Origin: Desulfobacterales bacterium
GTDB taxonomy: Bacteria > Desulfobacterota > Desulfobacteria > Desulfobacterales > Desulfobacteraceae
Direction of reading: 5' to 3'
NCBI GenBank assembly: GCA_023143455.1
Contig: JAGLHT010000028.1
Location: forward strand, 1 to 32,442
Length of the DNA stretch: 32,442 nucleotides
The notes under the pieces are model-generated. The model ran no database searches. It was not told the origin of the DNA and saw only the letters and a program-made list of their open reading frames with translations. A program made the translations under genes and the position numbers. Shown here one piece after another: positions 3,270 through 24,189 of this stretch (the stretch's first letter is position 1; each line of letters begins with the position of its first letter).

Positions 3270-4457
3270 ATGAAAACCGATTCAAATCAAAGTTGCAATA
3301 AAGGATGTTGTGATGAGAGCAACGAGCAAATTAAAGGATTTAACAGCTCAAATATCTCCATCATGCCTTCCATGCGCCCTCCTTTGAACCCCATGGCAGA
3401 ATATGAGAAATCTGGATATGAACTCTGTTCTTTTGTTGAGAATTTTGTGCAAACAGATGCAGATCCTGTTCCAAAAATCAAAACCCATCTTAGCAAAAAA
3501 GATATATTCTCCACCATTAAAGTGCGGTGTGGTATAAAAAGACATAAATATACAGTCACACCCGGTCTTTATTGTATTGGAAATCCAGACAAAAATTCTG
3601 AAGTCCTTGTCACTGCCAATTTCAAACTTACATTTGACCATGTAAGGTCACAACTTGAAGGCCTTGACGTATGGATTCTTGTGCTTGATACAAAAGGCGT
3701 AAATGTATGGTGTGCTGCAAGCAAAGGAACTTTTGCCACAGATGAATTGGTTAGACAAATAAAGCGTGCCTCTCTTGAAAAAATCGTGAGTCATCATAGA
3801 GTCATTGTTCCTCAGTTAGGAGCCACTGGTGTTTCTGCAAAAAAAGTCAAAAAGGACTCTGGCTTCAGAGTAGTGTACGGACCCATCAGAGCTTCAGACA
3901 TTATGACTTTTCTCAAAAACGATAGAAAAGCAGATCAAAAAATGAGAATGGTGACCTTTACTTTTTCTGAAAGACTGATCTTAATCCCTGTGGAATTAAA
4001 CATGGTCATGAAACCTGCTTTTATTGTATTAGCAATTATACTTTTATTGTCTGGTATTGGACCTGGAATTTTTTCTTTTTCCGTTGCATTATCAAGGGGT
4101 TCTATCGCAGCTGCTGCTCTTTTTATCGGTGTTTTTACCGGGGCTGTCATCACTCCGGCATTACTTCCCTATATACCTTTTAAAGCATTTGCCATAAAGG
4201 GTATTATCACAGGCGTGGTATTTGCCCTTGCAACAGGGTTTATGTTGACAACAACTCCATTTGTTTCATCAATGACTTCGTTAACAAGCCTTTTTTTATT
4301 AACTATTGCCATCAGCTCTTTTCTTGCCATGAATTTTACTGGGGCAACACCTCTTACATCCCCTTCCGGCGTAGAAAAAGAAATGAAAATGTTTATACCA
4401 GTACAACTTTTAAGCCTTGCCACTGCTGTAGGCTTCTGGATATATTCAGCTTTTTAA
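3270..4457 (+). CDS. hgcA: HgcA, corrinoid-dependent methyl carrier for mercury methylation
   Basis: This 395-residue membrane protein carries the HgcA cap-helix signature NVWCAASKGTF (residues 145-155), where Cys148 is expected to be the lower axial thiolate to the cobalt of the corrinoid. Upstream are the conserved stretches STIKVRCGIKRHKYTVTPGLYCIGNP and VLVTANFKLTFDHVR of the corrinoid-binding domain. About five membrane helices follow (residues 245-395), as in known HgcA. HgcA passes a methyl group from a folate-derived donor to Hg(II). Two oddities stand out. The fourth motif glycine (WCAAGK in the sequences I know) is Ser151. The N-terminus is roughly 50 residues longer than the reference protein I recall and starts with a Cys-rich CNKGCC. 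The start ATG has AGGGA 7 bases upstream. hgcB begins 23 bases downstream. Confidence 0.95.
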   Translation: MKTDSNQSCNKGCCDESNEQIKGFNSSNISIMPSMRPPLNPMAEYEKSGYELCSFVENFVQTDADPVPKIKTHLSKKDIFSTIKVRCGIKRHKYTVTPGLYCIGNPDKNSEVLVTANFKLTFDHVRSQLEGLDVWILVLDTKGVNVWCAASKGTFATDELVRQIKRASLEKIVSHHRVIVPQLGATGVSAKKVKKDSGFRVVYGPIRASDIMTFLKNDRKADQKMRMVTFTFSERLILIPVELNMVMKPAFIVLAIILLLSGIGPGIFSFSVALSRGSIAAAALFIGVFTGAVITPALLPYIPFKAFAIKGIITGVVFALATGFMLTTTPFVSSMTSLTSLFLLTIAISSFLAMNFTGATPLTSPSGVEKEMKMFIPVQLLSLATAVGFWIYSAF

Positions 4458-4480
4458 ATCTTAAATAACAGGAGTATTCC

Positions 4481-4780
4481 ATGTATGATCAAAGATATAT
4501 AGATGACGTGTCAAGTCTGGTATTAAATCCTGAAGAATGTGTAGGCTGTGGGCTGTGCGTTGAGGTCTGCCCCCACCGTGTTTTTGAACTTTCAGATAAA
4601 AAAGCTAAGATAGTTGATTTTAACGCCTGTATTGAATGTGGTGCCTGTGTAAACAATTGTCCGACCCAGGCCATTGAAGTTACTCCCGGAGTTGGCTGAG
4701 CAGCCTATATTATCCAGGGCTGGATAAAAGGAAAAGAAAATGCCTCCTGTGGTGGTTCAGCGAACACTGGCTGTTGCTAA
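4481..4780 (+). CDS. hgcB: HgcB, 2[4Fe-4S] ferredoxin with predicted selenocysteine at residue 73
   Basis: HgcB supplies electrons to HgcA. Two ferredoxin motifs are clear: CVGCGLCVEVCP (Cys20, 23, 26, 30) and CIECGACVNNCP (Cys50, 53, 56, 60). Read conventionally the frame stops at TGA (4697-4699) after 72 residues. The same frame then stays open to TAA at 4778 and encodes AAYIIQGWIKGKENAS, then CGGSANTGCC, which is the expected HgcB C-terminus with its terminal Cys pair (98-99). The UGA sits at position 73, where known HgcB proteins have an essential conserved Cys (PGVGC). A hairpin with a GG-containing loop follows the UGA at the spacing of a bacterial SECIS. I therefore call a 99-residue Sec protein. 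Start: ATG with AGGAG 7 bases upstream. arsC starts 14 bases after the TAA, so the extension fills what would otherwise be an odd gap. Confidence 0.88.
4700..4731 (+). promoter_or_regulatory. Candidate bacterial SECIS element in hgcB
   Basis: Directly after the UGA (4697-4699) the RNA can form CCU (4704-4706) with AGG (4729-4731), then an internal loop, then the 7-bp stem TTATCCA (4710-4716) with TGGATAA (4721-4727), closed by the loop GGGC (4717-4720). The loop begins 17 bases after the UGA. That is close to the E. coli fdhF arrangement I recall (18 bases, loop GGUC). It would recruit SelB with Sec-tRNA. Energy and SelB binding were not tested. Confidence 0.7.
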
Positions 4781-4794
4781 AGAGCAATATAACC

Positions 4795-5226
4795 ATGCCA
4801 GAAAAAATCAATATTTTATTTTTATGTACTGGTAATTCATGCCGAAGCCAGATGGCTGAAGGCTTTGCCCGACATATAAAAACAGATCTTATAAATCCCT
4901 TTTCAGCGGGCGTTGAAACCCATGGATTAAACTCTAATGCTGTAAAGGTTATGGCTGAGGCAGGCGTGGATATCTCTCACCATAAATCAAAGAACATTGA
5001 TGATTTTAAAAACATGAAATTTGACTATGTTATTACGGTTTGCTCCCATGCAAATGAAACCTGTCCCCTGTTTCCGAATGTTGGCAAAAAGGTTCATGTT
5101 AATTTTGATGATCCACCAGAAATGGCTAAAAATTTTAAAACAGACATAGAAAAACTTGACTGCTATAGAAAAGTCAGAGATCAAATAAAAGAATTTATAT
5201 TGGAACTACCTGATAATTTACTATAA
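4795..5226 (+). CDS. arsC: Arsenate reductase ArsC (thioredoxin-coupled, LMW phosphatase type)
   Basis: This 143-residue protein has the P-loop CTGNSCRS (Cys11 nucleophile, Arg17) and the second redox pair in VCSHANETCP (Cys83 and Cys90). This is the three-cysteine relay of the Staphylococcus-type ArsC that reduces arsenate to arsenite with electrons from thioredoxin. The frame also opens at a TTG (4774) inside hgcB. ATG 4795 is preferred because MPEKINILFLC is the normal N-terminus and AAAGAG lies upstream. It is the last gene of the hgcA-hgcB-arsC run and ends 11 bases before the convergent DHH gene. No arsenite pump or ArsR is next to it, so its role here may be general thiol or arsenic protection of a metal-processing operon; that part is inference. 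Confidence 0.92.
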   Translation: MPEKINILFLCTGNSCRSQMAEGFARHIKTDLINPFSAGVETHGLNSNAVKVMAEAGVDISHHKSKNIDDFKNMKFDYVITVCSHANETCPLFPNVGKKVHVNFDDPPEMAKNFKTDIEKLDCYRKVRDQIKEFILELPDNLL

Positions 5227-8807: not shown

Positions 8808-10004
8808 ATGTATAAACCTATTAAAATAGCTGATGGTATTTATTCAGTTGGATGTCGGGATTGGGATATCCGGGATTTTCATGGCTACTCAACTTACGAA
8901 GGTACCACTTATAATGCCTTTCTTGTCCTTGGTGAGAAAAATATTCTCATTGATACGGTAAAAGAAAAATTTGGAGATGAACTACTCTCAAATATCAGCA
9001 AAATAATTGATCCCAAAGAAATTGATATAGTGATCAGCAATCACACAGAGATGGATCATTCAGGAGCACTCCCCAAAGCAATGCATGTAATTGGAAAAGA
9101 CAAACCTCTTTATTGCTCTAAGATGGGTGCAAAAAATCTTAAAAGCCATTTTAAAAATGACTTTAATTTTAAAGCTGTGGGTTCAGGTGATACACTTAAG
9201 GTTGGAAACAGAACCTTTTCCTTTCTTGAAACAAAAATGTTGCACTGGCCTGACAGTATGTTCACATATCTTGTTGAAGATGCCATATTGTTTTCCAGTG
9301 ATGCCTTTGGACAACACTTTGCAGGCGACATGTTTTTTGATGATGAAATCGGAGATGAAATTATACCCCATGCAAGAAAGTACTATGCTAATATACTTCT
9401 TCACTTTTCAGGAAGGGTTCAGGATCTAATAAAGGATGTTACAAAAATGAACCTTAAAATTGATATGATATGCCCTGACCATGGTATTATCTGGCGGGAT
9501 AACCCTTCCAAAATCATACAACTCTATGACAAATGGTCAAAGCAGGAACCCGCTAAAAAAGCAGTAGTTATATTTGATTCCATGTGGGAAAGCACAACTA
9601 AGATGGCCCGGGCAATTACAAGTGGTATTGAATCTGAAGACGTTAAAGTAAGGCTTATGAATACCAGGAAGTGGCACAGAAGTGATATTATGACAGAAAT
9701 CCTTGATGCAGGTGCTATCGCTGTTGGATCTCCAACATTGAATAATGGTATTTTTCCGGTAATTGCAGATGTTATGACATATGTTAAAGGCCTTAAACCT
9801 CAAAATAAAATTGCTGCTGCGTTTGGATCTTATGGATGGAGTGGTGAGGCTGTAAAAATTCTGAATCAGGAATTTGCTGCAATGAAATTTGATATTATTG
9901 ATGAAGGAGTTAAGGTTCAGTATGTTCCTGAAGAGGAAGACTTAAGTAAATGTTTTGATCTGGGTGTAAAATTGGCTAAAGCATTAAAAGAGAAACTATC
10001 TTAG
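8808..10004 (+). CDS. fprA: A-type flavoprotein FprA/ROO (flavodiiron O2/NO reductase)
   Basis: This 398-residue cytoplasmic enzyme has a metallo-beta-lactamase-like diiron domain (about 1-250) followed by a flavodoxin domain (about 255-398). The diiron ligand motif is NHTEMDHSG (His79, Glu81, Asp83, His84). Later ligand segments are TKMLHWPDSM, SSDAFGQHF and CPDHGIIWR. The FMN phosphate loop is FDSMWESTTKMA, with SPTLNNGIFP and GSYGWSGEA further on. It reduces O2 to water or NO to N2O using rubredoxin or another electron donor. No rubredoxin domain is fused and none is adjacent. A good AAGGAG site precedes the ATG. The rubrerythrin-like gene starts 47 bases downstream, so the two probably form an oxygen-defence operon. 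Confidence 0.95.
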   Translation: MYKPIKIADGIYSVGCRDWDIRDFHGYSTYEGTTYNAFLVLGEKNILIDTVKEKFGDELLSNISKIIDPKEIDIVISNHTEMDHSGALPKAMHVIGKDKPLYCSKMGAKNLKSHFKNDFNFKAVGSGDTLKVGNRTFSFLETKMLHWPDSMFTYLVEDAILFSSDAFGQHFAGDMFFDDEIGDEIIPHARKYYANILLHFSGRVQDLIKDVTKMNLKIDMICPDHGIIWRDNPSKIIQLYDKWSKQEPAKKAVVIFDSMWESTTKMARAITSGIESEDVKVRLMNTRKWHRSDIMTEILDAGAIAVGSPTLNNGIFPVIADVMTYVKGLKPQNKIAAAFGSYGWSGEAVKILNQEFAAMKFDIIDEGVKVQYVPEEEDLSKCFDLGVKLAKALKEKLS

Positions 10005-10051
10005 GCTTTAACATAACTTTATAATAAAGAATTGACAATCAGGAGAAAACA

Positions 10052-10522
10052 ATGCCCAACGAATTTAATGCAAACGATATTTTTGAGATAGCCATAAAAA
10101 TCGAACAAAATGGCGCAATATTCTACAGGAATGCCGCAGAAAAAGTAGACAAAGAAGATAACAAAAAATTTCTACTTGAACTTGCTAAAATGGAAGATAC
10201 CCACGAAGCAACCTTTGAAAGTATGCAAAAAGAATTAAAAGACACAGAAGTGTTTTCAACAGCCTTTGACCCTGAAGATGAAAACATACTTTATCTAAAA
10301 GCTCTTGCTGATGCGCGGGTTTTTGCTAAAAAGGAAGAGCCGGTAAGTGAGTTTAAAGAAATTATTCACTCTGCTATCCAGGCAGAAAAAGATTCTATTG
10401 TTTTTTATCTTGGGATCAAGCAATTAGTTCCTGAAAAACATGGGAAATCAAAAATTGATTATATCATCAAAGAAGAAATGAGCCACATAAAGCTTCTTGT
10501 CAGAAAACTATCCCAACAATAG
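10052..10522 (+). CDS. Rubrerythrin-like ferritin-fold diiron protein (no rubredoxin domain)
   Basis: This 156-residue four-helix-bundle protein has the rubrerythrin diiron ligands spread over the usual helices: EIAIKIEQNGAIFYR, the ExxH of KMEDTHEATFE, AIQAEKDSIVFY, and the final ExxH of KEEMSHIKLL. Rubrerythrins reduce H2O2 with electrons from rubredoxin. The C-terminal rubredoxin-like domain of classical rubrerythrin (about 190 aa) is missing, as in the shorter family members, so an external donor is needed. The start ATG has AGGAGA 6 bases upstream. It follows fprA on the same strand and is followed by a GC-rich hairpin at 10539-10576 that may end the transcript. Confidence 0.88.
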   Translation: MPNEFNANDIFEIAIKIEQNGAIFYRNAAEKVDKEDNKKFLLELAKMEDTHEATFESMQKELKDTEVFSTAFDPEDENILYLKALADARVFAKKEEPVSEFKEIIHSAIQAEKDSIVFYLGIKQLVPEKHGKSKIDYIIKEEMSHIKLLVRKLSQQ

Positions 10523-12738: not shown

Positions 12739-15700
12739 TTAGTATTCTATTAGTTCTAAAATTCTATCTTCTTTTGCCAATTGATTTATTTTAACCATTT
12801 CAAAACTTGAAACTTCAATAAAAATATTACCTTTTTTATCAACAAGCTTTAGGTTATAGGTGTTTGTTTCCTCTCCTGAATTGATCTTCTCGGTAATACA
12901 ATAGTATTCTTCATTCTTTAAAACATCTTTGTAAAATTTTAAAGATTTAATTTTAAATGGGAGGACTGTCATATGTGTTGTAAAAAATTCCAAGAGACCA
13001 CCGGTTTGAAACATTGCATCCACAAATACTGGAGCCGCAACAAAATTGGGACCTTTTGAACCTTTAAAGAAATCTTTTTCACTCGTATCTTTAATAGTTG
13101 TAATCAATTTTTTACCATCAAAAGAGTTAATCTCAGTAATAGTTTTAAAAAGACCAAACATAAATAACCGTTTAGGATTATAAACAAGTGTTTCAACATC
13201 ACCATCATATTTTACAGAAGTGAATTCAGGAATTTTGATTTTCTTTGCTTGAAGCGGTTTATCAGCAAATCTATATTTCCCCTGATAATGAAGGATTGGG
13301 TCTCCCATTACCATCCCTTTAGGATTTTTAAACTGTGATGAAATATTGCAGGTATAAATATCATCTATGCCTTTGTTGCTTGTAATGAGAATCTCTTTTG
13401 ACCTGCCCTTAAGGAGTTTTATACCATAAGGAATTGAAAAATCTGTTAGTTCTACAAAGTTCCCATCATTACCATGTATCGATTTTGCGACCTGAGCCAT
13501 GGTTTCTATTCCTGTTGATCCTAGAAAAAGCGGTACATCATCCATAGTATGGTCATGAAGGAAAACATCCCTTTCAAGATCAAGAACTCTGGAATAAGTT
13601 ATAGTTTTTTCAGTTTGCTCAACAATATCATCAAGGAATGGAAATTCAACATCTGACGGATTCCCAAGAAGACCGTCTTTGTCAAATGAATAATCAAGAC
13701 CCGAAAAAACCATTTCTGTTTCAGTTTTATCAAGCAGATCCGCCATAAAGAATTTTACGCCCTGCTCCATGGGAAGAAACTGTATACCTCTTTCTTCGAG
13801 CACCTTTCTAACCGTTGGATTTGTTGCCATTCCAACACCACCCCAGGCAGTCCATGCATAAACCTTATAAGTTTTATCAGGATGAAGTTGTTTTTGTCGG
13901 AACAGAGTTTTACCAATCAAATCATTTGCACAAGTATAATCAACCTGCCCCTCATTTCCAAATCTTGCTGTAACAGATGAAAATGTAAAGAAATATTTAT
14001 AATCTCTTTCCTCTGTCGCCCTTAGAAGGTTTCGCATTCCTTTCACCTTTACATCAACAACAAGTTCAAAAACCCATAACTCTTTTTTGGGTATAAACTG
14101 ACTCATTTCCATGCCTGCTGCATGGAAAATTCCATCAATTTTCTCATACTTATCAACTGCTTTTTTTACAGCTTTATAATCAGTCACGTCTACACAATTA
14201 TAATCAACAGAGACACCCATGGATTTTAAGTTTTCAATGTTTTCTACAGATTGCCGTACCCTTAGAAGTTGATCCAATGCTTTTTTAATTTCTAATGGTT
14301 TTGCCCCTTTCATATCAGTTTTGAGCATTTCCATAAGCTCTGGCTGGTCTGTATTCTTATCAAGATATTTTTTATCAGTACTGTAAATATCATTAATATC
14401 AAGAATGATCAGGTTTGTTTTATATTTTTCAACAACTTTTTTAATAATTTCATAGGTGATACCTCCTGCGCCGCCTGTTACAAGCATGGTATCATTATCT
14501 TTAATAATTTTTTCTGTTTTATCTGCTATGCTTGTTTTCATACTTAAACAATAACGTTTTTTATTTTTATACCCTATCTCGCACCTTGTATCATCAGAAA
14601 GAAGCTCATCAATAAAAACTTCAGCTATTTTATTTATACTCTTTTTTGGCTGCTTATAAGAAAAATCAACAACCTTTACCATTGTATCTGCCATTTCCTT
14701 ATTCACAGTTTTCAAAAGACCTGCAAGTCCTCCAAATGCCGGATGGATATCACCACAATCTTTCAAATCCGACAAATATGGGAAAACAACAGAGTCAAAT
14801 GCAATTGTTCCGATTATACTCTCTTTTTTATCAAGTTTTTCAAACAAGCTTTTAATCATTACAAAGAAGGATTTGATTGTTGCGTTGATTTCTTTATCTG
14901 AATCTTCTTTGGAAAAATAATAATCCAAAGGAGCAAGGTGAATAAAACCATCTATCTCAGGATGTTTTTCCTTGAACTCTTCAACTCTTTTTTCGCATGT
15001 TTTTACATCAGTAAGATCAAATTTAAAATCAGCTCCTTTTACCCCAACAGTTATTACTTTACCCTTTTTTTCTTTGATCTTTTCAATTACTTTTTCAGCA
15101 AAACCATGGCTATCAAGAGATACAATAATTATTTTATCTTTTAAATCTCTTTTAGAAAGTTTTAGATCATTTGTTTGCTCAGCTCTCACAATCAGCCTTT
15201 TTATGGGAGATGATGGATCAGGAAATTCATCGTCACCTTTCACATCCCCTTTTATTACTACCTTTTTTATTTCAGGTGTAACTAAATAGGTGTTCTCACT
15301 TTTTGTACCACTTGAGTTTGAGCTTATTGTTGCAATATATTCGCTAAGTCTTGCTATAGTATTCAAATCTCGCAATCTCAAATCGTCAGGTACGGAGAAT
15401 TTAAACTTATTGGCAAGAGATCCAAATATCTCAACCTGCTTTACTGTGTCTATACCTAAATCTGCCTCAAGATCAAGATCATCTTCAAGCATATCTGTTG
15501 TATAGCCTGTCTGCTCACTAATTATTACTCGTACATTCTCAACTATGTCAGAAGCATCACCACCAAAGCCTTTTTGAACCTCTATATCGACACTTATATC
15601 AACATCAATATCTCCTTTAGTTTCTATACCACTATCTTTTGTTGCCGGCGCCGCCGTAACACCTGCTTTGGTACCTATATATTCAGCAAGTTTTGCTATT

Positions 15701-18700
15701 GTATTTAAATCTCTTAGCCTTAAATCATCAGGCACGGAAAATTGAAACTTTGTGGCAAGGCTACCAAATATCTCTACCTGTTTTACCGTGTCTATACCTA
15801 AATCTGCCTCAAGATCAAGATCATCCTCAAGCATATCTGTTGTATAGCCTGTCTGCTCACTAATTATTACTCGTACATTCTCAACTATGTCAGAAGCATC
15901 ACCACCAAAGCTTTTACCAGCATCTGAATCGACACCAGCCTCTGGCTTTAAATCAGTTGATGAAATTTCCTTTACTACTTGAGAGGGACCGGCTTTAGTG
16001 CTTACATATTCACTAAGTTTTAATACTGTATTTAAATCTCTTAACCTTAAATCATCAGGCACAGTGAATCCAAACTGTGTTGCAAGGCTGCCAAAGATTT
16101 CTACCTGTTTTACTGTATCTATACCTAAATCTGCCTCAAGATCAAGATCATCCTCAAGCATGTCTGTTGTGTAACCTGTCTGGGTAGCTATTATTTCTTT
16201 TATCTTTTCTAAATGATCACCATAATTTGCTACAAAATCAGGCGCAGCAGGTGGTGCTTTAAATTCCTTTTGCTCAATTGCAGGTTTAGAAACAATTATC
16301 TTTTGAACTTGAGCTGCTACTTTTTCTTTTCTAATAGCAGGTTGTCCATCAGACACAACACAAAGAATATTATCAATAATCTTGAGTTCAGGATTTTCAG
16401 CTTTAGTAATTTTTTTAAGCCATGCACGATACCCAGGATTCTTCTCAAAAGAGTTCTCCTGAATTCTTTTAACAAAAAGAAATGCAAAATGTGACCCAAA
16501 CCCTGCTGCAAGATGAAGTCCGTATTCAGAATCTATTTCCTTTTTAGTACTAAAATTGAGTTTACTAAAATGCTTTGGAATTTTCTGTAAGTTTGCAATG
16601 GGAGGAGCTTTTCTTTTCTGAAGTGCTTTTATAAGAACAACGTCCTCAATTGCAGCTCCAAGAGTATGACCTGTAAATCCTTTTGTGTTTGAAATACAGA
16701 TATGATTTAGATATTCGCTAAAAGTTGACTCAAGTGCCTGTACCTCAGCATCAGCACTTCCACCCCTTGCAGGAGTATATGTTTCATGGGACATGAACAA
16801 CAATTTCTTAGCATACTTATCTTTACTCAGACCATGCTGTTTTTCAATCTTGGTGATAAATTTGGTCATCTCAGCCGTCATATGAGGAACATCAATATTA
16901 TAGGAATGATACCCGGAATTTGCTATATGGGTTCCAAGTATTTCTGCCTGACCTTTCATGCCTCTTTCAACTGCACTTGCTTTATTCTCAATAACCAGAC
17001 CCACGGCACCGCTACCGACTATAGTGCCATTTCTGTCCTCATCAAATGGTTTTGCAGCTTCTGAAACTCTTTTCTTAATTGTGGCAGCACCAAGGGCTAA
17101 AAAACCTGAACCAATCCATTGATTCTGCCTTGCTGATGTGGCGTTTTCTCCACCAACAACAAGCACTCTTTTACACCTTCCAACTCTGATCCAGTCCTCG
17201 GCAATTCCAATTGCCAGGGTTGTTGAAGCGCATGCACTTGACACAAGAGTATTCGGACCTTTTGCCTTAAGTATCTTGGCAAGATGTGCAGAGCCAAGTG
17301 GGCAATTATTTGCAAGAAAATTTCTATCGAATTTATATCCACTAAAATCTTTCTTTTTTCTTGCTTTAGCCTTAAAAAACCATTCAGTCAGCTCTTCTTT
17401 AACTTTAACATCCTGTATTTGTTCCATTAAGAAATAATAGATATTTTCAAATTCTTCATAGGGTTTTAAAAAGAATTTTTCGTAATAATAATTTTCAAGC
17501 TCTCCAATCAAAGTCTCCCCATTGGGGAAAAGCGAAGTAAGAATAACACCGGTATTTTCCTGCATTTCTTCGGGCAATGCAAACCCATCAGGGATAATAG
17601 TCTTGCCATTTTTAGAAAGTTTATATTGCATAACAAGGGGGATCCCTGCATCTTTAAGAGCTTCAATACCTGCTGCAATTCCAAGACCCATGCTGATATC
17701 ATACTGCTCTTTTATTCCATATTCATCTGTTAAATCAAAATAGCCAAGCTGACCTGCAAGATGAATAACATCTTCTGCTTTTGTTATTTTTACAAACTTC
17801 GCACTTCCGTCAGGCTGTTTATAAAGTTTTGTTATATTCTTATCTATAATTCTCTCCTGATCGTCAGGAGAAAGAGGTTCAATAAAGTTTTTGCCATCAA
17901 GTATTGCATCAAAATTATCGCTTGCAAAAACCTTCCTTGCTTTCCCTGGAAGTCCCAGAGAAACACCTGAAATCACAATTGATTCCGTGTTGAAATTAAA
18001 TTTCTCAAAAGCATTAACAGCAGTTTCTTGTTGCTGGCGCTGGAACTCATTAAAAAGCAAATTATCAATATATTGCTTGTTCTTGTTTTTAAATGTATCA
18101 AAATCTTCATGTGATGAAACTGACAGACCTAAAGTAAATGTATCTGAAATAGTTTTTGTCTTATTCATAAATGTATCATCCTTTGATTCCTGTGCCTCCA
18201 TTGCCTCAAGTGATCCTATTGATTCCGGCAAAGAAGCCGGCTTAACAAAAATAGAGTTATATGACCTTAAATATCCCATGCAATCATCAAAAGAAGTTTT
18301 CTCACCCTTTTTAATATCAACAGTAACTGCTGTATTGTAATCAGCGATGTTAATGTTTTTTAAAAGGTTAACAAGCAGCTTTGAAGGCCCTATTTCAATA
18401 AAATGCGTTCTCCCGCTTGCATAGACATATTCAATAGATTTGATAAATTCCACAGGTGATATAATCTGTTTTGCAAGAAGATCTTTTACCTCATGTCTCC
18501 TTTCAGAATATGGTTTACCAAGGGCATTTGATATTATTTTTCCATACCGTGTTTCTTTTAATCTTATAGTGTCAAGATAATCTCTCAATTTCACAGAAGC
18601 TTTATTAAGGAGCGGGGTATGAAACGCGCCGGAAAGATTCAGTTTTGTAAAAGAGACCTCTTTACTTTGTAGAAACTCACAGAATTTTGCAATTGAATCT

Positions 18701-21700
18701 TCAGTGCCTGACACAGCAGTCTGCTTTTCGCTGTTTTTATTTGTAACATAGATACTTGATACAAAAGATTCTCTGATTAATAATTCAACCTCTTTTTCAT
18801 TTTTAAATACAACCATTATCTTACCTGGGATTTCATCACCTGCTTCTTTCATCAGATCTGCCCGTTTAATGATAAGTTTCATTGCATCATCAAAATCTAT
18901 CATTCCATTACAATAAAGTGCTGTATATTCCCCAACACTATGACCTATAAAGTAATCAGGAGAAAAACCTTCACTGTGGAGTCTGTCAAAAATTGCAGCT
19001 GATGACAGGAAAATTGCAGGCTGGGTATTTTCAGTAAGATTCAAATCAGGGTTATCTTTAAACATCATTTCAAGAAGAGAATATCCTCTTTTGGCTTGAA
19101 ATATTTTCTCGCCCTGGTCCATTGTGTTCTTAATTTGTACATCTTTTTCATACAATTCTTTCATCATGCCGCTTCGTTGGGCGCCCTGTCCGGAAAGAAG
19201 TGCCACCATCCTGAGTTTGCGACCTTTTTTATCTGATGAATATGAAAAATCTCTTAGCCTGACACTCTCAGCCTGTGTTGCTTCTATCTTTGTTTTGCCT
19301 GCAACAAGGCTTTTTGGCAATGCACTTGCAATAACATGCATATGATTACCACCAATTCCATTAACATTTGATGCAAACCTGACAGGTTTGTTTTTATCGA
19401 GAGTTATAATTTCTTTTGCTGTTCTTAAAGCCCTGCTATCATTTAATGTAGAATGTTCTTCTGAATAATTAAAATTAGGTGGTATTTTGTTATTTTTTAT
19501 CATAAGCATAAGTTTCGCAAGAGCGACTGCAGGATTTGCAGCTCTAAAATATCCAAACTGAGGCTTTGAATTACCACAATAAACTTCATGATCAAAACAT
19601 TCTTCTACAACCTGTTTTTCCACCATATCTCCAAATATATTGGAAAATGCAAACATATCTAAATGACTGATATCCTGTTTTCTAATACCGCTCTTTTTGT
19701 AACAATCATTTATTGTGGCTGCAAAAACAGGCCCGGAAGGTGAAAGAAGATGATCAGGAACACTTGATTTTATAGAAAATTGATTCAGCTCCCCAAGTAT
19801 TTCCATGTCTGCTTCTTTTGCTTTTTTGAAAGTAGTAAGAACGTGCATGGCAGCACCTTCACCCATAATATATCCATCTGCTCTTGAATCGAAACAATTA
19901 CAATCGCCTTCAGAAAGGAGTCCCATGCGTTTAAAAGCCATTAATGCAGCAGGATAAAGGTTTGTATCAACACCACCCGTAAGAACAAAATCAAGATCTT
20001 TAAATAAAAGCTCCCGGGCAGCAGATCGCATCGCAACAGTGGCTGACGCACATGAAGCATCAACAACATAGTTTGCTCCGTTAAACCCAAAATAATTAGC
20101 AATTCTGCCTGATATTATGTTTGAAAGTAATCCGGGAGTAGTATCTCCATTGTTTTCAGGGATTGTTTTTTCAATAATAGAAATAACATGATCTGCCATT
20201 GCTTTCCTAGCGTTTTTAGGAATTCCTGAATTATTATTCAACAATTGTGCAATAAATTGTTTTCTTACTCTTAAAATATTTTTGCATTGTCTTTCACCTG
20301 CAATTGTTCCCAAGATAACGCCTGCTTTATTTCCCTTTTCAAGGCATTTAGCAAGCCCTGACGTATTAACTGCTTCGTCAGCTACCATCAGTCCGAAAAG
20401 TTGTCCACGTTCAACAGATTTGACCACAGTTGGAGGCATTTTATATTTTAGATTATTAAATTTAAAATCTCTTGCAATTCCTGCTTTTACTTTTGGAAGC
20501 CAGTAAAAGGATCCTTTTTCTTCTTCAGAATACGCTTTATTATTAAAAATTCTATCAGGGATTGGACTTAAAACAGTGCTTCCTGATTGGAGCTGTTTCC
20601 AGAACTCTTCTTTATTATTTGCCTCGCCAAGAAGAATGCCCAGACCTGCAACAACAATTCTGTCATCATTAAAATCATATTCTGTATTGGAAAAAATATC
20701 TCTTTTTAATAGTTGATAATCATCTCTATATTCCTGGAGAAGTGCATGATAGTTAATCCCACCAAAGCCATATGCACTTACACCTGCTCTTTTTAATTTC
20801 CCATTGCTTTCCCATTTTTGCTGATCTTTAACTATAAATAATGATGAGTCACTCAAATTACAATTTTTCGACAAGTTCTCAAACTGACAATTAGGTGGAA
20901 GAATCCCATGATTAATAGCAAGCAAAGCTTTAATAAAACCTGCTGCACCAGAGCCTCCTAAAAGGTGACCAATCTGTGATTTAATAGAGCTTATTCCAGC
21001 ATTGGCACCTTTATATTTATCTTTTAAGGTGGCAATCTCAACTTCATCACCAACTATTGTTGAAGTTCCATGGGCTTCAATGAAACCAATATCCTGTGGT
21101 TTAATATCCTGAAGTGCTTTTTCGTAACATCTTTCTATGCAAAGCTTCTGCCCTAGAGGATTTGGTGCTGCAATTGCTTTGCCTTTTCCATCAGAACTTG
21201 ACCCAATGGAATTTATTACTCCAAGGATATTATCCTTATCCCTCACTGCATCCTTCATTCTTTTTAACATGAACACAACAGAACCTTCCCCAAGGATAAA
21301 TCCATCAGCTTTTTCATCAAAAGGGAATGAACCTTTTGCAGATAAAGTCCCCATTTTTGAAAATCCGATAAAAGTTTCCGGAGAAAGATGAGTATTTACT
21401 CCACCGACAATAACCTGGTCATGCTCTCCTGAAAGGAGCTCTCCTGCTGCTGCATCAATTGCAGCAAATGATGAAGCGCATGCTGCATCAATCACATAGT
21501 TGATGCCCCGAATTCCAAGATGACTTGCGATTCTTGAGGCTTCAATATTTAAAATCACTCCATGGACAGGGTCATAACCGGGGTTATCTCCTTCAAACCC
21601 TTGTTTTAACAATTCTCTTAATTCATCTTTTTGTTTTTTAGTTAAATTCTGGTATTCATCTGTTTCCTTAACCCAGGATAAAACTTCAGGAAAATAATAT

Positions 21701-24189
21701 TTGAACAAAAGATCATTTCCCAGCTCATTTCCAAGGCATGTTGCAATAATTACAGCTGTCCTTGATGGATCATCACATATAATCTGATCATTCTCGCCAA
21801 GATACCCGGCATTTTCAACCGCTTTATATGCAGTATCAAGTATAATTTGCTGGCTTTTTGAAAGCCTTGATGCTTTATCTCCTTCATACCCGAATCTATT
21901 ACCATCAAATTTATAATCATTAATGCAGCCTGCAAGAAGAGTATATGATTTGTCTACAGCACTTTTATCAGCATCATAATAGAGCTTTCGATCAACTCTT
22001 GATTCAGGAATCTTTGATATGGAATATTTTTTTGCAAGGATATTCTCCCATAGTTGTTCTGGAGAATCAGCATCAGGAAGGGTACATGCCATACCAACCA
22101 CCGCTATCTCATCATTAATTTTATTTTTTTCAGAAGTAATAATTTCAAGATTGTTCATATTTTGAAAAAGAAGAGATTTGTTTTCCATATATCTTGAATG
22201 AATATCGGAAATGGTAAGTTGCTCGTTAAAAAATGCAAGGCTGTCTCCCACGAGGAAATTCCCTTTTTCTTTATGTTCTTCTCCTTCAAAATATGTATAA
22301 TTTTCTTTGCCGGGGTTCTTGAAATCAGGGAGAAATCCCTTTGCTCCAATTAACAGAGATCCGATATTCTTTTGTTCAAAAGTATGTTTTCTGTTCTCCA
22401 GGCTATCTTTACCTTTTATCATATCTTGTTCTATCTTAAGCATCATTTTTGCAAATTGAGTTGGTGCTGTTCTTGATAAAAGACCTACTGACTCACCTAC
22501 TACAACAGTTTCGTCCAGCTGGGATATGATCTGTTGATATTGGCTTTTAAGACTCTTTGTTTTAATAATTTCTTGGGTAAAAAGATATGCTGTCCCTACC
22601 TGAACACCTACTTTTGCACCTCTTGCTACAAGCAGTGAAGACAACCCTGAAATAAAAAAACCTGCGTAACATGTTGAAATGCCACCGGCAAAGATCAAAG
22701 AAAAAGTAGAAAGATCATACTCTTTTTCTTCATTAACATGGGCAATTGCAACTTCCCATAGTACAAGACTTGAAAGAGCACCTACATGCCCGCCTGCTTC
22801 TCCCCCTTCAAATATAAACCTTTTGCACCCGCTTTTTATTCCATTTTTCAGCATAGAAACAGATGGAGCATGGAGATAAGTTTTTGTACCGGCCTTTTCA
22901 AGATCAATAATCTGAGATGGAATTCCTCCGGCAAAAAGAGCAAAGGGGACTTTATAATCTTTAACCATTTGCAGATGGCTGTCCACCGCAGGGTTAAATG
23001 CTTCAATCCCTACTAATCCTGCACCAAATCTATCCAGATTTTTTGCGCCATCTTTAAGCATATTATCTGCAAGATCATAGGGAAGACTTCCCACCGCAAG
23101 GAATGGTAATGCACCAGCTTCAAAAACCTTTTTAGCAAATCTTGAATTATCGCTTATATTTGCCATGGGACCCTGAATAATTGGATATTTGGTTCCATGC
23201 ATTTTTGCAAGATCTGAATCTGCCTTTAAAGGGTCATGTTGATCAACATAACTAAGGTTTGTGCCAATACCTTTAAAAAAAGTTGCGATCATCTCTTTTA
23301 AAGACCTTGTGTTTTTTGCAAAATATTTTGCAAAAACACCATCCTGGCCAAGATAAAATAAAGATTGAATAAATTGAGCTTCATTATCATCAAGAGAAAC
23401 AATCTCAGCTTTAATCATTTCAAAAAGCTTTTCTCCGTGACCTGGTTTATCACCAAGCTCCACAGCTTCCTGCTTCAAATCTTTTACAACTTTAGTTCCT
23501 ATTTTAGCAAAAACCCTATATATATTGTTACTATCTGTTTTAATTTGAGTAGAATCATTTTCATCCAGAGACAAAACAAGTTTTTTTAAATTTTCAGAAA
23601 TTGGAGCCTCTTCTGAAAGCCATACCTGGCTGTCAAAAACAACCCCACAGACTCCTGCTGCAAACATTCCTGCTGCTGTATACATCCCAACACCACCCTG
23701 AACAAAGATCGGGAAATCAGAATTTTTAAGATACCATTGCATAAGGATAAATGAAGAATATTTTGAAACCCTGCCGGAAGCTTCATTACCCTTTAAAATC
23801 AGGGTATGGGGCATTATTGTTTTTATCTTTTCATCAATATCAATATCTCTTATCTCAAGGGCAATTTTTGTATCTGAAAATTTGGAAAAATCAGCAGGTA
23901 TATCACCTTTTCCTAAAGGAGCAATAATAAGGTCAAGATTGTCAGATTCCAGTTTTTTGATCTCATCTATTAGATTCTGATCCTGACCGGAAAGTCTTAC
24001 ACCAAAAAGCAAATTTTCCCTTGAAAGTTTTTCAACTCTTTCAAGTATTAAATCCTTGTCTAAAAATTGAGTATCAAAAATACCAAGTGCACCGGAATCA
24101 TTTATTGCTTTGAAATAGTTCAAGTCAAACACTTTTACAGGATTTAAGACCATTAAAGGCAATCTTGAATTAATTATTCTTGTTAACAT
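12739..24189 (-). CDS. Single-chain PfaA/PfaD-like polyketide/fatty acid megasynthase (3816 aa)
   Basis: Domains in order by residue: degenerate nitronate-monooxygenase fold (1-225); PfaD-like enoyl reductase/NMO (330-620, EGGEAGGH with His468); KS1 (694-1150, Cys904, His1040, His1075); KS2 (1170-1620, Cys1380 but Phe1513 and Tyr1547 in place of the two His); AT (1658-1970, GHSVGEY Ser1751, His1857); KS3 (2065-2575, Cys2320, His2468 in SHETYTP, His2508 in TGHTLGA); three ACP-like repeats with IDTVKQ (Thr2692, Thr2801, Thr2915); KR (2985-3500, TGGAGGI at 3238, Ser3405, Tyr3418, Asn3422); DH (3540-3800, HDH at 3545-3547, Asp3724 in FVDAMFQ). This is the enzyme set of PUFA/secondary-lipid synthases fused into one iterative chain. 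No phosphopantetheinyl transferase is in the window. ATG with GGAG 7 bases upstream. A sigma-54 activator gene is divergent. Product unknown. Confidence 0.93.
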   Translation of the reverse strand: MLTRIINSRLPLMVLNPVKVFDLNYFKAINDSGALGIFDTQFLDKDLILERVEKLSRENLLFGVRLSGQDQNLIDEIKKLESDNLDLIIAPLGKGDIPADFSKFSDTKIALEIRDIDIDEKIKTIMPHTLILKGNEASGRVSKYSSFILMQWYLKNSDFPIFVQGGVGMYTAAGMFAAGVCGVVFDSQVWLSEEAPISENLKKLVLSLDENDSTQIKTDSNNIYRVFAKIGTKVVKDLKQEAVELGDKPGHGEKLFEMIKAEIVSLDDNEAQFIQSLFYLGQDGVFAKYFAKNTRSLKEMIATFFKGIGTNLSYVDQHDPLKADSDLAKMHGTKYPIIQGPMANISDNSRFAKKVFEAGALPFLAVGSLPYDLADNMLKDGAKNLDRFGAGLVGIEAFNPAVDSHLQMVKDYKVPFALFAGGIPSQIIDLEKAGTKTYLHAPSVSMLKNGIKSGCKRFIFEGGEAGGHVGALSSLVLWEVAIAHVNEEKEYDLSTFSLIFAGGISTCYAGFFISGLSSLLVARGAKVGVQVGTAYLFTQEIIKTKSLKSQYQQIISQLDETVVVGESVGLLSRTAPTQFAKMMLKIEQDMIKGKDSLENRKHTFEQKNIGSLLIGAKGFLPDFKNPGKENYTYFEGEEHKEKGNFLVGDSLAFFNEQLTISDIHSRYMENKSLLFQNMNNLEIITSEKNKINDEIAVVGMACTLPDADSPEQLWENILAKKYSISKIPESRVDRKLYYDADKSAVDKSYTLLAGCINDYKFDGNRFGYEGDKASRLSKSQQIILDTAYKAVENAGYLGENDQIICDDPSRTAVIIATCLGNELGNDLLFKYYFPEVLSWVKETDEYQNLTKKQKDELRELLKQGFEGDNPGYDPVHGVILNIEASRIASHLGIRGINYVIDAACASSFAAIDAAAGELLSGEHDQVIVGGVNTHLSPETFIGFSKMGTLSAKGSFPFDEKADGFILGEGSVVFMLKRMKDAVRDKDNILGVINSIGSSSDGKGKAIAAPNPLGQKLCIERCYEKALQDIKPQDIGFIEAHGTSTIVGDEVEIATLKDKYKGANAGISSIKSQIGHLLGGSGAAGFIKALLAINHGILPPNCQFENLSKNCNLSDSSLFIVKDQQKWESNGKLKRAGVSAYGFGGINYHALLQEYRDDYQLLKRDIFSNTEYDFNDDRIVVAGLGILLGEANNKEEFWKQLQSGSTVLSPIPDRIFNNKAYSEEEKGSFYWLPKVKAGIARDFKFNNLKYKMPPTVVKSVERGQLFGLMVADEAVNTSGLAKCLEKGNKAGVILGTIAGERQCKNILRVRKQFIAQLLNNNSGIPKNARKAMADHVISIIEKTIPENNGDTTPGLLSNIISGRIANYFGFNGANYVVDASCASATVAMRSAARELLFKDLDFVLTGGVDTNLYPAALMAFKRMGLLSEGDCNCFDSRADGYIMGEGAAMHVLTTFKKAKEADMEILGELNQFSIKSSVPDHLLSPSGPVFAATINDCYKKSGIRKQDISHLDMFAFSNIFGDMVEKQVVEECFDHEVYCGNSKPQFGYFRAANPAVALAKLMLMIKNNKIPPNFNYSEEHSTLNDSRALRTAKEIITLDKNKPVRFASNVNGIGGNHMHVIASALPKSLVAGKTKIEATQAESVRLRDFSYSSDKKGRKLRMVALLSGQGAQRSGMMKELYEKDVQIKNTMDQGEKIFQAKRGYSLLEMMFKDNPDLNLTENTQPAIFLSSAAIFDRLHSEGFSPDYFIGHSVGEYTALYCNGMIDFDDAMKLIIKRADLMKEAGDEIPGKIMVVFKNEKEVELLIRESFVSSIYVTNKNSEKQTAVSGTEDSIAKFCEFLQSKEVSFTKLNLSGAFHTPLLNKASVKLRDYLDTIRLKETRYGKIISNALGKPYSERRHEVKDLLAKQIISPVEFIKSIEYVYASGRTHFIEIGPSKLLVNLLKNINIADYNTAVTVDIKKGEKTSFDDCMGYLRSYNSIFVKPASLPESIGSLEAMEAQESKDDTFMNKTKTISDTFTLGLSVSSHEDFDTFKNKNKQYIDNLLFNEFQRQQQETAVNAFEKFNFNTESIVISGVSLGLPGKARKVFASDNFDAILDGKNFIEPLSPDDQERIIDKNITKLYKQPDGSAKFVKITKAEDVIHLAGQLGYFDLTDEYGIKEQYDISMGLGIAAGIEALKDAGIPLVMQYKLSKNGKTIIPDGFALPEEMQENTGVILTSLFPNGETLIGELENYYYEKFFLKPYEEFENIYYFLMEQIQDVKVKEELTEWFFKAKARKKKDFSGYKFDRNFLANNCPLGSAHLAKILKAKGPNTLVSSACASTTLAIGIAEDWIRVGRCKRVLVVGGENATSARQNQWIGSGFLALGAATIKKRVSEAAKPFDEDRNGTIVGSGAVGLVIENKASAVERGMKGQAEILGTHIANSGYHSYNIDVPHMTAEMTKFITKIEKQHGLSKDKYAKKLLFMSHETYTPARGGSADAEVQALESTFSEYLNHICISNTKGFTGHTLGAAIEDVVLIKALQKRKAPPIANLQKIPKHFSKLNFSTKKEIDSEYGLHLAAGFGSHFAFLFVKRIQENSFEKNPGYRAWLKKITKAENPELKIIDNILCVVSDGQPAIRKEKVAAQVQKIIVSKPAIEQKEFKAPPAAPDFVANYGDHLEKIKEIIATQTGYTTDMLEDDLDLEADLGIDTVKQVEIFGSLATQFGFTVPDDLRLRDLNTVLKLSEYVSTKAGPSQVVKEISSTDLKPEAGVDSDAGKSFGGDASDIVENVRVIISEQTGYTTDMLEDDLDLEADLGIDTVKQVEIFGSLATKFQFSVPDDLRLRDLNTIAKLAEYIGTKAGVTAAPATKDSGIETKGDIDVDISVDIEVQKGFGGDASDIVENVRVIISEQTGYTTDMLEDDLDLEADLGIDTVKQVEIFGSLANKFKFSVPDDLRLRDLNTIARLSEYIATISSNSSGTKSENTYLVTPEIKKVVIKGDVKGDDEFPDPSSPIKRLIVRAEQTNDLKLSKRDLKDKIIIVSLDSHGFAEKVIEKIKEKKGKVITVGVKGADFKFDLTDVKTCEKRVEEFKEKHPEIDGFIHLAPLDYYFSKEDSDKEINATIKSFFVMIKSLFEKLDKKESIIGTIAFDSVVFPYLSDLKDCGDIHPAFGGLAGLLKTVNKEMADTMVKVVDFSYKQPKKSINKIAEVFIDELLSDDTRCEIGYKNKKRYCLSMKTSIADKTEKIIKDNDTMLVTGGAGGITYEIIKKVVEKYKTNLIILDINDIYSTDKKYLDKNTDQPELMEMLKTDMKGAKPLEIKKALDQLLRVRQSVENIENLKSMGVSVDYNCVDVTDYKAVKKAVDKYEKIDGIFHAAGMEMSQFIPKKELWVFELVVDVKVKGMRNLLRATEERDYKYFFTFSSVTARFGNEGQVDYTCANDLIGKTLFRQKQLHPDKTYKVYAWTAWGGVGMATNPTVRKVLEERGIQFLPMEQGVKFFMADLLDKTETEMVFSGLDYSFDKDGLLGNPSDVEFPFLDDIVEQTEKTITYSRVLDLERDVFLHDHTMDDVPLFLGSTGIETMAQVAKSIHGNDGNFVELTDFSIPYGIKLLKGRSKEILITSNKGIDDIYTCNISSQFKNPKGMVMGDPILHYQGKYRFADKPLQAKKIKIPEFTSVKYDGDVETLVYNPKRLFMFGLFKTITEINSFDGKKLITTIKDTSEKDFFKGSKGPNFVAAPVFVDAMFQTGGLLEFFTTHMTVLPFKIKSLKFYKDVLKNEEYYCITEKINSGEETNTYNLKLVDKKGNIFIEVSSFEMVKINQLAKEDRILELIEY
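15446..15911. repeat. Two near-identical 124-bp direct repeats inside the ACP tandem
   Basis: Positions 15446-15569 and 15788-15911 are the same but for one base seen by eye, offset by 342 bases. They encode the end of the linker and the first half of ACP3 and ACP2 (residues up to the Thr at 2915 and 2801). The first ACP copy (Thr at 16114-16116) is clearly more diverged. The identity includes synonymous positions, so the duplication or gene conversion is recent. Confidence 0.85.

What the first reader, a model, noticed from the sequence alone, without database searches (positions are those of the whole stretch)
4481..4780. HgcB with selenocysteine in place of the essential Cys73
The apparent hgcB stop (UGA at 4697) sits exactly at residue 73, in PGVG-UGA-AAYIIQGWIKGKE. 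Known HgcB proteins have an invariant Cys there, important for mercury methylation. The same frame carries on for 26 codons with the family tail and terminal CC, a SECIS-like hairpin follows at the canonical distance, and arsC starts 14 bases after the true TAA. Sec binds Hg(II) far more tightly than Cys, so a Sec at the proposed mercury-relay site would be a notable variant of the methylation pathway. I know of no description of it, but cannot search.
Basis: partly seen in the sequence, partly recalled or inferred. Interest (0 to 1): 0.95.

Follow-up and report, generated by a model that had tools for sequence, protein, structure and literature searches.

The report
Selenocysteine-form HgcB mercury-methylation ferredoxin
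In this bacterium, and in all 16 sampled genomes of its family that carry the gene, the mercury-methylation protein HgcB has a UGA codon that is very likely read as selenocysteine where other bacteria have an essential cysteine; this kind of selenoprotein is already listed in print, so it is a well-supported new example, not a first discovery.

Summary
hgcB (4481-4780) follows hgcA and has an in-frame UGA at 4697, residue 73, the place of the strictly conserved Cys. Read through, the protein matches the HgcB model to its last position (125.5 bits, cut-off 99). Comparative evidence for selenocysteine is strong: all 16 hgcB-bearing genomes found in its family have UGA there, all 7 from other families of the order have Cys. 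The hairpin stem behind the UGA is complete in 53 of 53 distinct UGA genes and 1 of 32 Cys genes; stem plus GG loop in 52 of 53 (3.9 expected by synonymous chance) and 0 of 32. selA, tRNA-Sec and a Sec-type formate dehydrogenase are in the genome; selB and selD were not found in this 79%-complete assembly but are in the same-genus genome searched. Not new in kind: a 2026 review lists HgcB with motif GVGU. Added here, and not seen in the passages I could read: presence throughout the family sample, frozen SECIS codons, Val/Gly80 likely forced by the SECIS loop, and frequent loss of HgcA's N-terminal Cys pair beside UGA-HgcB. Any effect on mercury is untested.

The parts
3270..4457 (+). hgcA, corrinoid membrane protein of mercury methylation; cap helix reads NVWCAASKG (usual NVWCAAGKG)
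   Evidence: NF040863 427.5 bits, cut-off 275; PF03599; cap helix variants counted
4471..4474 (+). GGAG, likely ribosome binding site of hgcB
   Evidence: read in the sequence; inference
4481..4780 (+). hgcB with UGA read as selenocysteine, 99 aa, TAA at 4778-4780
   Evidence: NF040864 125.5 bits over 1-93/93, cut-off 99
4697..4699 (+). UGA codon 73, predicted selenocysteine, at the place of the essential Cys73
   Evidence: role of Cys73 from PMC7305189 (passages)
4710..4727 (+). predicted SECIS upper hairpin: stem 4710-4716 with 4721-4727, loop GGGC 4717-4720
   Evidence: fold; full stem in 53 of 53 distinct UGA genes
4704..4731 (+). lower 3-bp stem of the same hairpin, 4704-4706 with 4729-4731
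   Evidence: fold; absent or different in several relatives
4772..4777 (+). C-terminal Cys-Cys of HgcB
4795..5226 (+). arsC-like gene (low-molecular-weight phosphatase / arsenate reductase family) next to hgcB
   Evidence: PF01451; TIGR02691 151.7 bits, under its cut-off of 174.3; found behind hgcB in only a few UGA relatives

Best explanation
The hgcB gene here carries an in-frame UGA at codon 73, which is very likely decoded as selenocysteine under the direction of a predicted SECIS hairpin directly behind it, and this would give a full-length 99-residue HgcB with selenium where HgcB otherwise has its essential cysteine. The protein would then work as HgcB does in the published models: two [4Fe-4S] clusters pass electrons to the corrinoid of HgcA, the terminal Cys pair carries Hg(II) or methylmercury, and residue 73 takes part in that transfer; the selenolate would be the stronger mercury ligand. 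Shown by sequence: the UGA, the hairpin, its conservation at synonymous sites, protein constraint after the UGA, and presence in every hgcB-bearing family genome sampled. Inferred: decoding as Sec. Untested: any effect on mercury binding or methylation.
For: Codon 73 is TGA in 69 and TGC/TGT in 34 of 103 parsed loci, copies included. Own family: 24 genomes searched, 16 with hgcB, 16 of 16 with UGA; other families of the order: 15 searched, 7 with hgcB, 7 of 7 with Cys. Phylum sample: 115 of 395 genomes over the cut-off (the window's genome is one of them); 45 distinct loci read from it all have TGC/TGT. Distinct UGA genes use ATT-ATC at residues 77-78 and ATA at 82 in 53 of 53, against 7/32, 15/30 and 3/22 of the Ile codons in Cys genes. 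Full 7-bp stem in 53 of 53 (Cys 1 of 32); stem plus GG loop in 52 of 53, 3.9 expected from synonymous resampling, 0 of 32 and 0 of 45 in Cys genes. Residue 80 is Val 51, Gly 2 in UGA genes; Thr 15, Ser 10, Gly 3, Val 2, Lys 1, Glu 1 in Cys genes. In codons 83-89, after the stem, codon positions 1, 2, 3 vary 0.022, 0.011, 0.369. The window hairpin meets the four bSECIS rules printed in PMC13188914. Own genome: selA, tRNA-Sec 78.8 bits, FdhA with UGA in CARLUHSSTVAGLA. Among 24 genomes searched (window's included) selB is in 21 and selD in 20, among them G001 of the same genus and 17 of 17 of good quality. UGA in records titled Desulfospira joergensenii, Desulfocicer vacuolatum and Desulfamplus magnetovallimortis.
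Against: selB and selD were not found in this assembly; its best selB-like hit is a piece of EF-Tu. Completeness is 78.67%. The hairpin of the window alone is not significant. With the printed rules applied to a 44-nt fold, 8 of 53 UGA genes miss (all on energy) and 5 of 32 plus 5 of 45 Cys genes pass, so the rules alone do not discriminate well. Rfam has no SECIS match. The UGA genes are nearly all one clade, so they are not 53 independent events. No protein-level evidence.
Confidence: 0.94

Rival explanations
1. The UGA is a real stop and the cell makes a 72-residue HgcB without residue 73 and the tail, that is, a decaying or reduced gene.
For: UGA ends 5 of the 19 gene frames that I listed in the window, so it is a normal stop here.
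Against: The codons after it vary almost only at third positions; the read-through matches NF040864 to its last position; the same UGA recurs in 53 distinct genes with a frozen hairpin; Cys73 to Ala abolishes methylation in vivo (PMC7305189, passage).
Confidence: 0.03
2. Sequencing or assembly error for TGC/TGT.
For: The window is from an incomplete draft assembly of 109 contigs.
Against: The same UGA stands in 53 distinct genes from many separate records, three of them with species names, together with a hairpin that Cys genes lack.
Confidence: 0.01
3. UGA is read as another residue (Cys by near-cognate decoding, or Trp by a changed code).
For: Cys would fit the position.
Against: UGA ends 5 of 19 listed frames, and the 3816-codon frame at 12739-24189, which ends in TAA, contains none (the frames were cut at stops, so the lack of inner UGA in the others is partly by construction). 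selA, tRNA-Sec and a canonical Sec formate dehydrogenase are present. A changed code would not freeze a hairpin behind this codon.
Confidence: 0.02
4. Sec73 is real, but the pair's native job is not mercury: selenium was fixed for redox or another metal(loid), and mercury methylation is a side reaction. This is compatible with Sec decoding and is a rival only to the functional reading.
For: PMC7305189 says that it is not known why microbes methylate mercury and that it is generally not thought to be detoxification (passage); an arsC-like gene adjoins hgcB here and in a few relatives.
Against: Nothing here tests it; Cys73 is needed for mercury methylation in the Cys form.
Confidence: 0.35

Closest known systems
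Selenoprotein form of HgcB (NF040864, motif GVGU, example WP_250697400.1; PMC13188914 table, citing Haft & Gwadz 2023)
   Same: Same family and motif GVGU, UGA at the Cys73 place.
   Different: Nothing essential seen. The window has Gly80 where 51 of 53 distinct UGA genes have Val. The primary paper was not held, so its organisms and details could not be compared.
Cys-form HgcB of Pseudodesulfovibrio mercurii ND132
   Same: Two CxxCxxCxxxCP cluster motifs, residue 73, terminal Cys pair, partner HgcA (sequence; PMC7305189 passages).
   Different: UGA in place of the Cys codon, and a hairpin behind it.
Selenoprotein form of HgcA (NF040863, motif CU)
   Same: Same pathway, Cys to Sec change in the partner protein.
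   Different: hgcA of the window has no UGA between its start and its stop. CU in HgcA was seen here only beside Cys-HgcB.
E. coli formate dehydrogenase SECIS (recalled)
   Same: Small apical loop with GG about 17-18 nt behind the UGA; 41 of 53 UGA relatives have codon GTC at 80, which gives the loop GGUC after CAG.
   Different: A bulged U, recalled as part of the E. coli element, was not looked for.

Membership tests
HgcB (NF040864) | Score over the curated cut-off along the whole model | tested here: met
   125.5 bits against 99, profile 1-93/93, with UGA read through as C
HgcB (NF040864) | Two CxxCxxCxxxCP cluster motifs and a terminal Cys | tested here: met
   sequence
HgcB (NF040864) | Lies next to hgcA | tested here: met
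   HgcA 427.5 bits, ending 23 bases upstream
Bacterial selenoprotein gene | In-frame UGA at a Cys position of homologues | tested here: met
Bacterial selenoprotein gene | SECIS directly behind the UGA by the four printed rules | tested here: met
   loop 4 nt, stem 7 bp, GG first, spacing 17 nt, -9.0 kcal/mol; relatives 45 of 53, Cys genes 5 of 32 and 5 of 45
Bacterial selenoprotein gene | Hairpin conserved beyond what the protein sequence requires | tested here: met
   52 of 53 against 3.9 expected; not corrected for shared descent
Bacterial selenoprotein gene | selA, selB, selC, selD in the genome | tested here: inconclusive
   selA and selC found; selB and selD not found in a 78.67% complete assembly, both present in same-genus G001
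Bacterial selenoprotein gene | Selenium in the protein | not testable with these tools
   needs 75Se labelling or mass spectrometry
Mercury-methylating HgcAB | Methylates Hg(II) | not testable with these tools
   no assay

The most novel reading that the evidence does not exclude
Selenium sits at most once in an HgcAB pair, and it moves: either in the N-terminal CC/CU pair of HgcA or at residue 73 of HgcB. Where HgcB gained Sec73, the HgcA N-terminal pair became dispensable and decayed, so that one selenolate took over the mercury-capturing job of a two-thiol site. The SECIS then reshaped the protein, forcing Val or Gly at residue 80.
Probability: 0.2. Interest if true: 0.7.

Novelty: new member of a known kind. 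Interest (0 to 1): 0.42.

Why it matters
Residue 73 of HgcB is needed for making methylmercury in the one strain where, to my knowledge, it was tested, and the mercury step of the reaction is unresolved. A bacterial family that has very likely replaced this Cys by Sec is a natural experiment on that residue, and it implies that selenium supply may bear on HgcB in these organisms. It is also practical: a gene caller that stops at UGA cuts this HgcB to 72 residues and loses the residue that matters. The pattern in HgcA (frequent lack of the N-terminal Cys pair beside UGA-HgcB) points to a possible role for a region whose function I did not see described in the passages that I read.

Tried and rejected
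Rejected: truncation, sequencing error, changed genetic code (see rivals). Rejected: several independent origins suggested by TGA flags in other families of the phylum sample. Six genomes besides the window's were flagged; the five over the cut-off were opened and have Cys73, with the TGA right behind the last Cys residues in four and within the tail in L160; the sixth, G153 (60.3 bits, under the cut-off), was not opened. Rejected as shown: a second origin in L077 (its HgcA falls among Cys types); a single origin is not rejected (p-AU 0.777). Rejected: arsC as a fixed partner; besides the window and its copy L107 it was found behind 6 loci, of which two pairs (L109/L056, L115/L034) look like copies, while 59 UGA loci, copies included, have over 1.5 kb downstream. 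Rfam gave no SECIS. My first HgcB pattern was too narrow and was replaced (that one misses L087, which reads as TGT). My first two HgcA N-terminus scans were poorly anchored and were replaced. Rows dropped: copies (103 loci to 85 distinct); L085 and L119 as too short and L055 and L067 without an HgcA match; in the tree, phylum rows that do not span most of HgcA (119 rows kept). Of 122 genome contigs relatives only the best 80 were kept, which favours relatives close to the query. Of the 115 phylum genomes over the cut-off only part were opened (47 loci, 45 distinct). That no other window frame has an inner UGA is partly circular, since the frames were cut at stops. Not done: structure prediction, the protein database search, metagenome scans.

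Full report
What is there. The window holds hgcA (3270-4457) and, after 23 bases, hgcB (4481-4780). hgcB has one in-frame UGA, at 4697, codon 73. With the UGA read through, the protein matches the NCBI HgcB model at 125.5 bits over profile positions 1-93 of 93 (cut-off 99), and HgcA matches its model at 427.5 bits (cut-off 275). In HgcB of strain ND132 residue 73 is a strictly conserved Cys; its change to Ala abolishes mercury methylation in vivo (PMC7305189, passages seen).

Relatives. A scan of the GTDB genome contigs gave 122 relatives, of which the best 80 were kept. With 23 loci from the genome search and the window there are 104 loci, of which 103 were parsed: codon 73 is TGA in 69, TGC in 17 and TGT in 17, copies included (the one missed, L087, is TGT). 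In the own family 24 genomes were searched, 16 have hgcB, and all 16 have UGA; of 15 genomes from other families of the order 7 have hgcB, and all 7 have Cys. The HgcB stretches of three unnamed family genomes (L111, L113, L114) are the same as those in the records of Desulfocicer vacuolatum, Desulfospira joergensenii and Desulfamplus magnetovallimortis (L068, L027, L074), so the family is Desulfobacteraceae (inference). In a phylum sample of 395 genomes, 115 have HgcB over the cut-off, the window's genome among them. Six other genomes were flagged with a TGA inside the match. The five over the cut-off (L157-L160, L172) were opened and have Cys at 73; the TGA stands right behind the last Cys residues in four and within the tail in L160. 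The sixth, G153, under the cut-off, was not opened. Every one of 45 distinct loci read from that sample has TGC or TGT; not all 115 genomes were opened.

SECIS. After removal of copies there are 53 UGA and 32 Cys genes. In the UGA genes Ile77 is ATT, Ile78 is ATC and Ile82 is ATA in 53 of 53; the Cys genes use these codons in 7 of 32, 15 of 30 and 3 of 22 Ile codons. These codons form much of the two arms of a 7-bp stem, complete in 53 of 53 UGA genes and in 1 of 32 Cys genes. Stem plus GG loop is present in 52 of 53, where random synonymous choice with the codon usage of hgcA in the same locus (pooled where that is missing) expects 3.9; it is present in 0 of 32 and 0 of 45 Cys genes. The second G of the loop is the first base of codon 80, which is Val in 51 and Gly in 2 UGA genes, including the window, but Thr or Ser in 25 of 32 Cys genes: the SECIS likely dictates this residue. 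Third positions vary at 0.035 in codons 77-82 (the stem and loop) and at 0.369 in codons 83-89, while first and second positions of codons 83-89 vary at 0.022 and 0.011. The first contrast points to an RNA constraint, the second shows that the stretch after the UGA is kept as protein. The window hairpin satisfies the four bacterial SECIS rules given in PMC13188914 (section 5 read): loop 4 nt, stem 7 bp, GG at the loop start, 17 nt spacing, -9.0 kcal/mol.

Results against. The hairpin of the window is not special against shuffles (20 of 200 at least as good). On a 44-nt fold 8 of 53 UGA genes miss the energy limit of -7.5, and 5 of 32 and 5 of 45 Cys genes meet the rules. The UGA genes are nearly all one clade: on a quick tree of HgcA 51 of 52 form one group with SH-aLRT 99, and L077 falls among the Cys types; a single origin is not rejected (p-AU 0.777). 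So the counts are not independent events, and the Fisher and resampling figures are not corrected for descent. selB and selD were not found in the assembly; the nearest selB match is EF-Tu.

Machinery. The genome (2.70 Mb in 109 contigs, 78.67 percent complete) has selA (612.4 bits to TIGR00474), tRNA-Sec (78.8 bits, gathering score 47) and a formate dehydrogenase with UGA in CARLUHSSTVAGLA followed by a hairpin with a GG-containing loop. Of 24 genomes searched, the window's included, 21 have selB and 20 have selD, among them the one same-genus genome and 17 of 17 of good quality. Each selD match there contains one TGA. UGA also serves as an ordinary stop: it ends 5 of the 19 gene frames that I listed in the window.

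HgcA. In the 30 residues before the conserved PGY-type start of the corrinoid domain, a CC or CU pair is present in 27 of 29 distinct HgcA beside Cys-HgcB (one of the two misses is at a contig start) and in 10 of 52 beside UGA-HgcB. The window's HgcA has none there, though it has CC further up, at residues 13-14. Against a general rule: in the wider phylum set, all beside Cys-HgcB, a pair within 34 residues is present in 33 of 45 distinct rows, or 30 of the 38 whose start is well aligned, so the pair can be missing without a UGA-HgcB. CU in HgcA was seen in 3 of 29 and 9 of 45, always beside Cys-HgcB, and in 0 of 52 beside UGA-HgcB. The split follows essentially one clade, so it is a lead and not a test.

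What is known. PMC13188914 (passages and section 5 seen) lists HgcB NF040864 with GVGU and HgcA with CU among prokaryotic selenoproteins and cites Haft & Gwadz 2023 for HgcB. That paper is not held, so I cannot say which organisms or details it gives; it may contain some of what I call added here. [quoted passage not shown] PMC11205478 (one passage) calls Desulfospira joergensenii a putative mercury methylator. Searches for hgcB with selenocysteine gave one paper, for mercury methylation with selenoprotein and hgcA three, for hgcAB with selenium and selenoprotein none. In the passages that I saw the family-wide presence, the codon freeze and the HgcA pattern are not described. The library lacks most subscription papers.

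How it would work. PMC7305189 proposes that the terminal Cys pair of HgcB delivers Hg(II) to the corrinoid and then hands methylmercury to Cys73 (passages). With Sec at 73 the same relay would run through a selenolate, a stronger ligand for mercury (established chemistry, recalled). Whether this speeds, slows or protects the reaction is unknown.

Verdict. A real, very likely selenoprotein HgcB, typical of its family; a new member of a kind already in print.

Noticed in passing
window 3270-4457: The cap helix of HgcA reads NVWCAASKG; of 74 loci with a matched cap helix 69 have NVWCAAGKG and 5 the Ser form (window and its copy L107, L043 and L117, L122), copies included; 29 of 103 loci gave no match to the pattern.
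   Followed up: partly
HgcA N-termini of L073, L096, L102, L130, L133, L137, L139, L140, L152, L154, L156, L168: CU instead of CC before the corrinoid domain: predicted Sec forms of HgcA, all beside Cys-HgcB.
   Followed up: partly
L077:3211: UGA-HgcB with the same frozen hairpin codons in a locus whose HgcA groups with Cys types: a second gain, exchange of the gene end, or tree error.
   Followed up: partly
L061 hgcB tail; L160 hgcB tail: A UGA within the tail, before the terminal Cys pair: in L061 at the Gly place right after ASC (ASCUDSGCC, beside UGA73), in L160 beside Cys73. Early end, error or another Sec.
   Followed up: no
window 12739-24189: 3816-residue protein with three ketoacyl synthase, one acyltransferase, three carrier, a KR and a dehydratase stretch: polyketide or polyunsaturated fatty acid synthase type.
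   Followed up: no
window 8808-10522: Flavodiiron-type protein (ODP plus flavodoxin domains) followed by a rubrerythrin-family gene: likely oxygen or NO defence.
   Followed up: no
selD in L123-L126: selD of relatives has an in-frame UGA with a hairpin behind it, so SelD is itself a predicted selenoprotein there.
   Followed up: no
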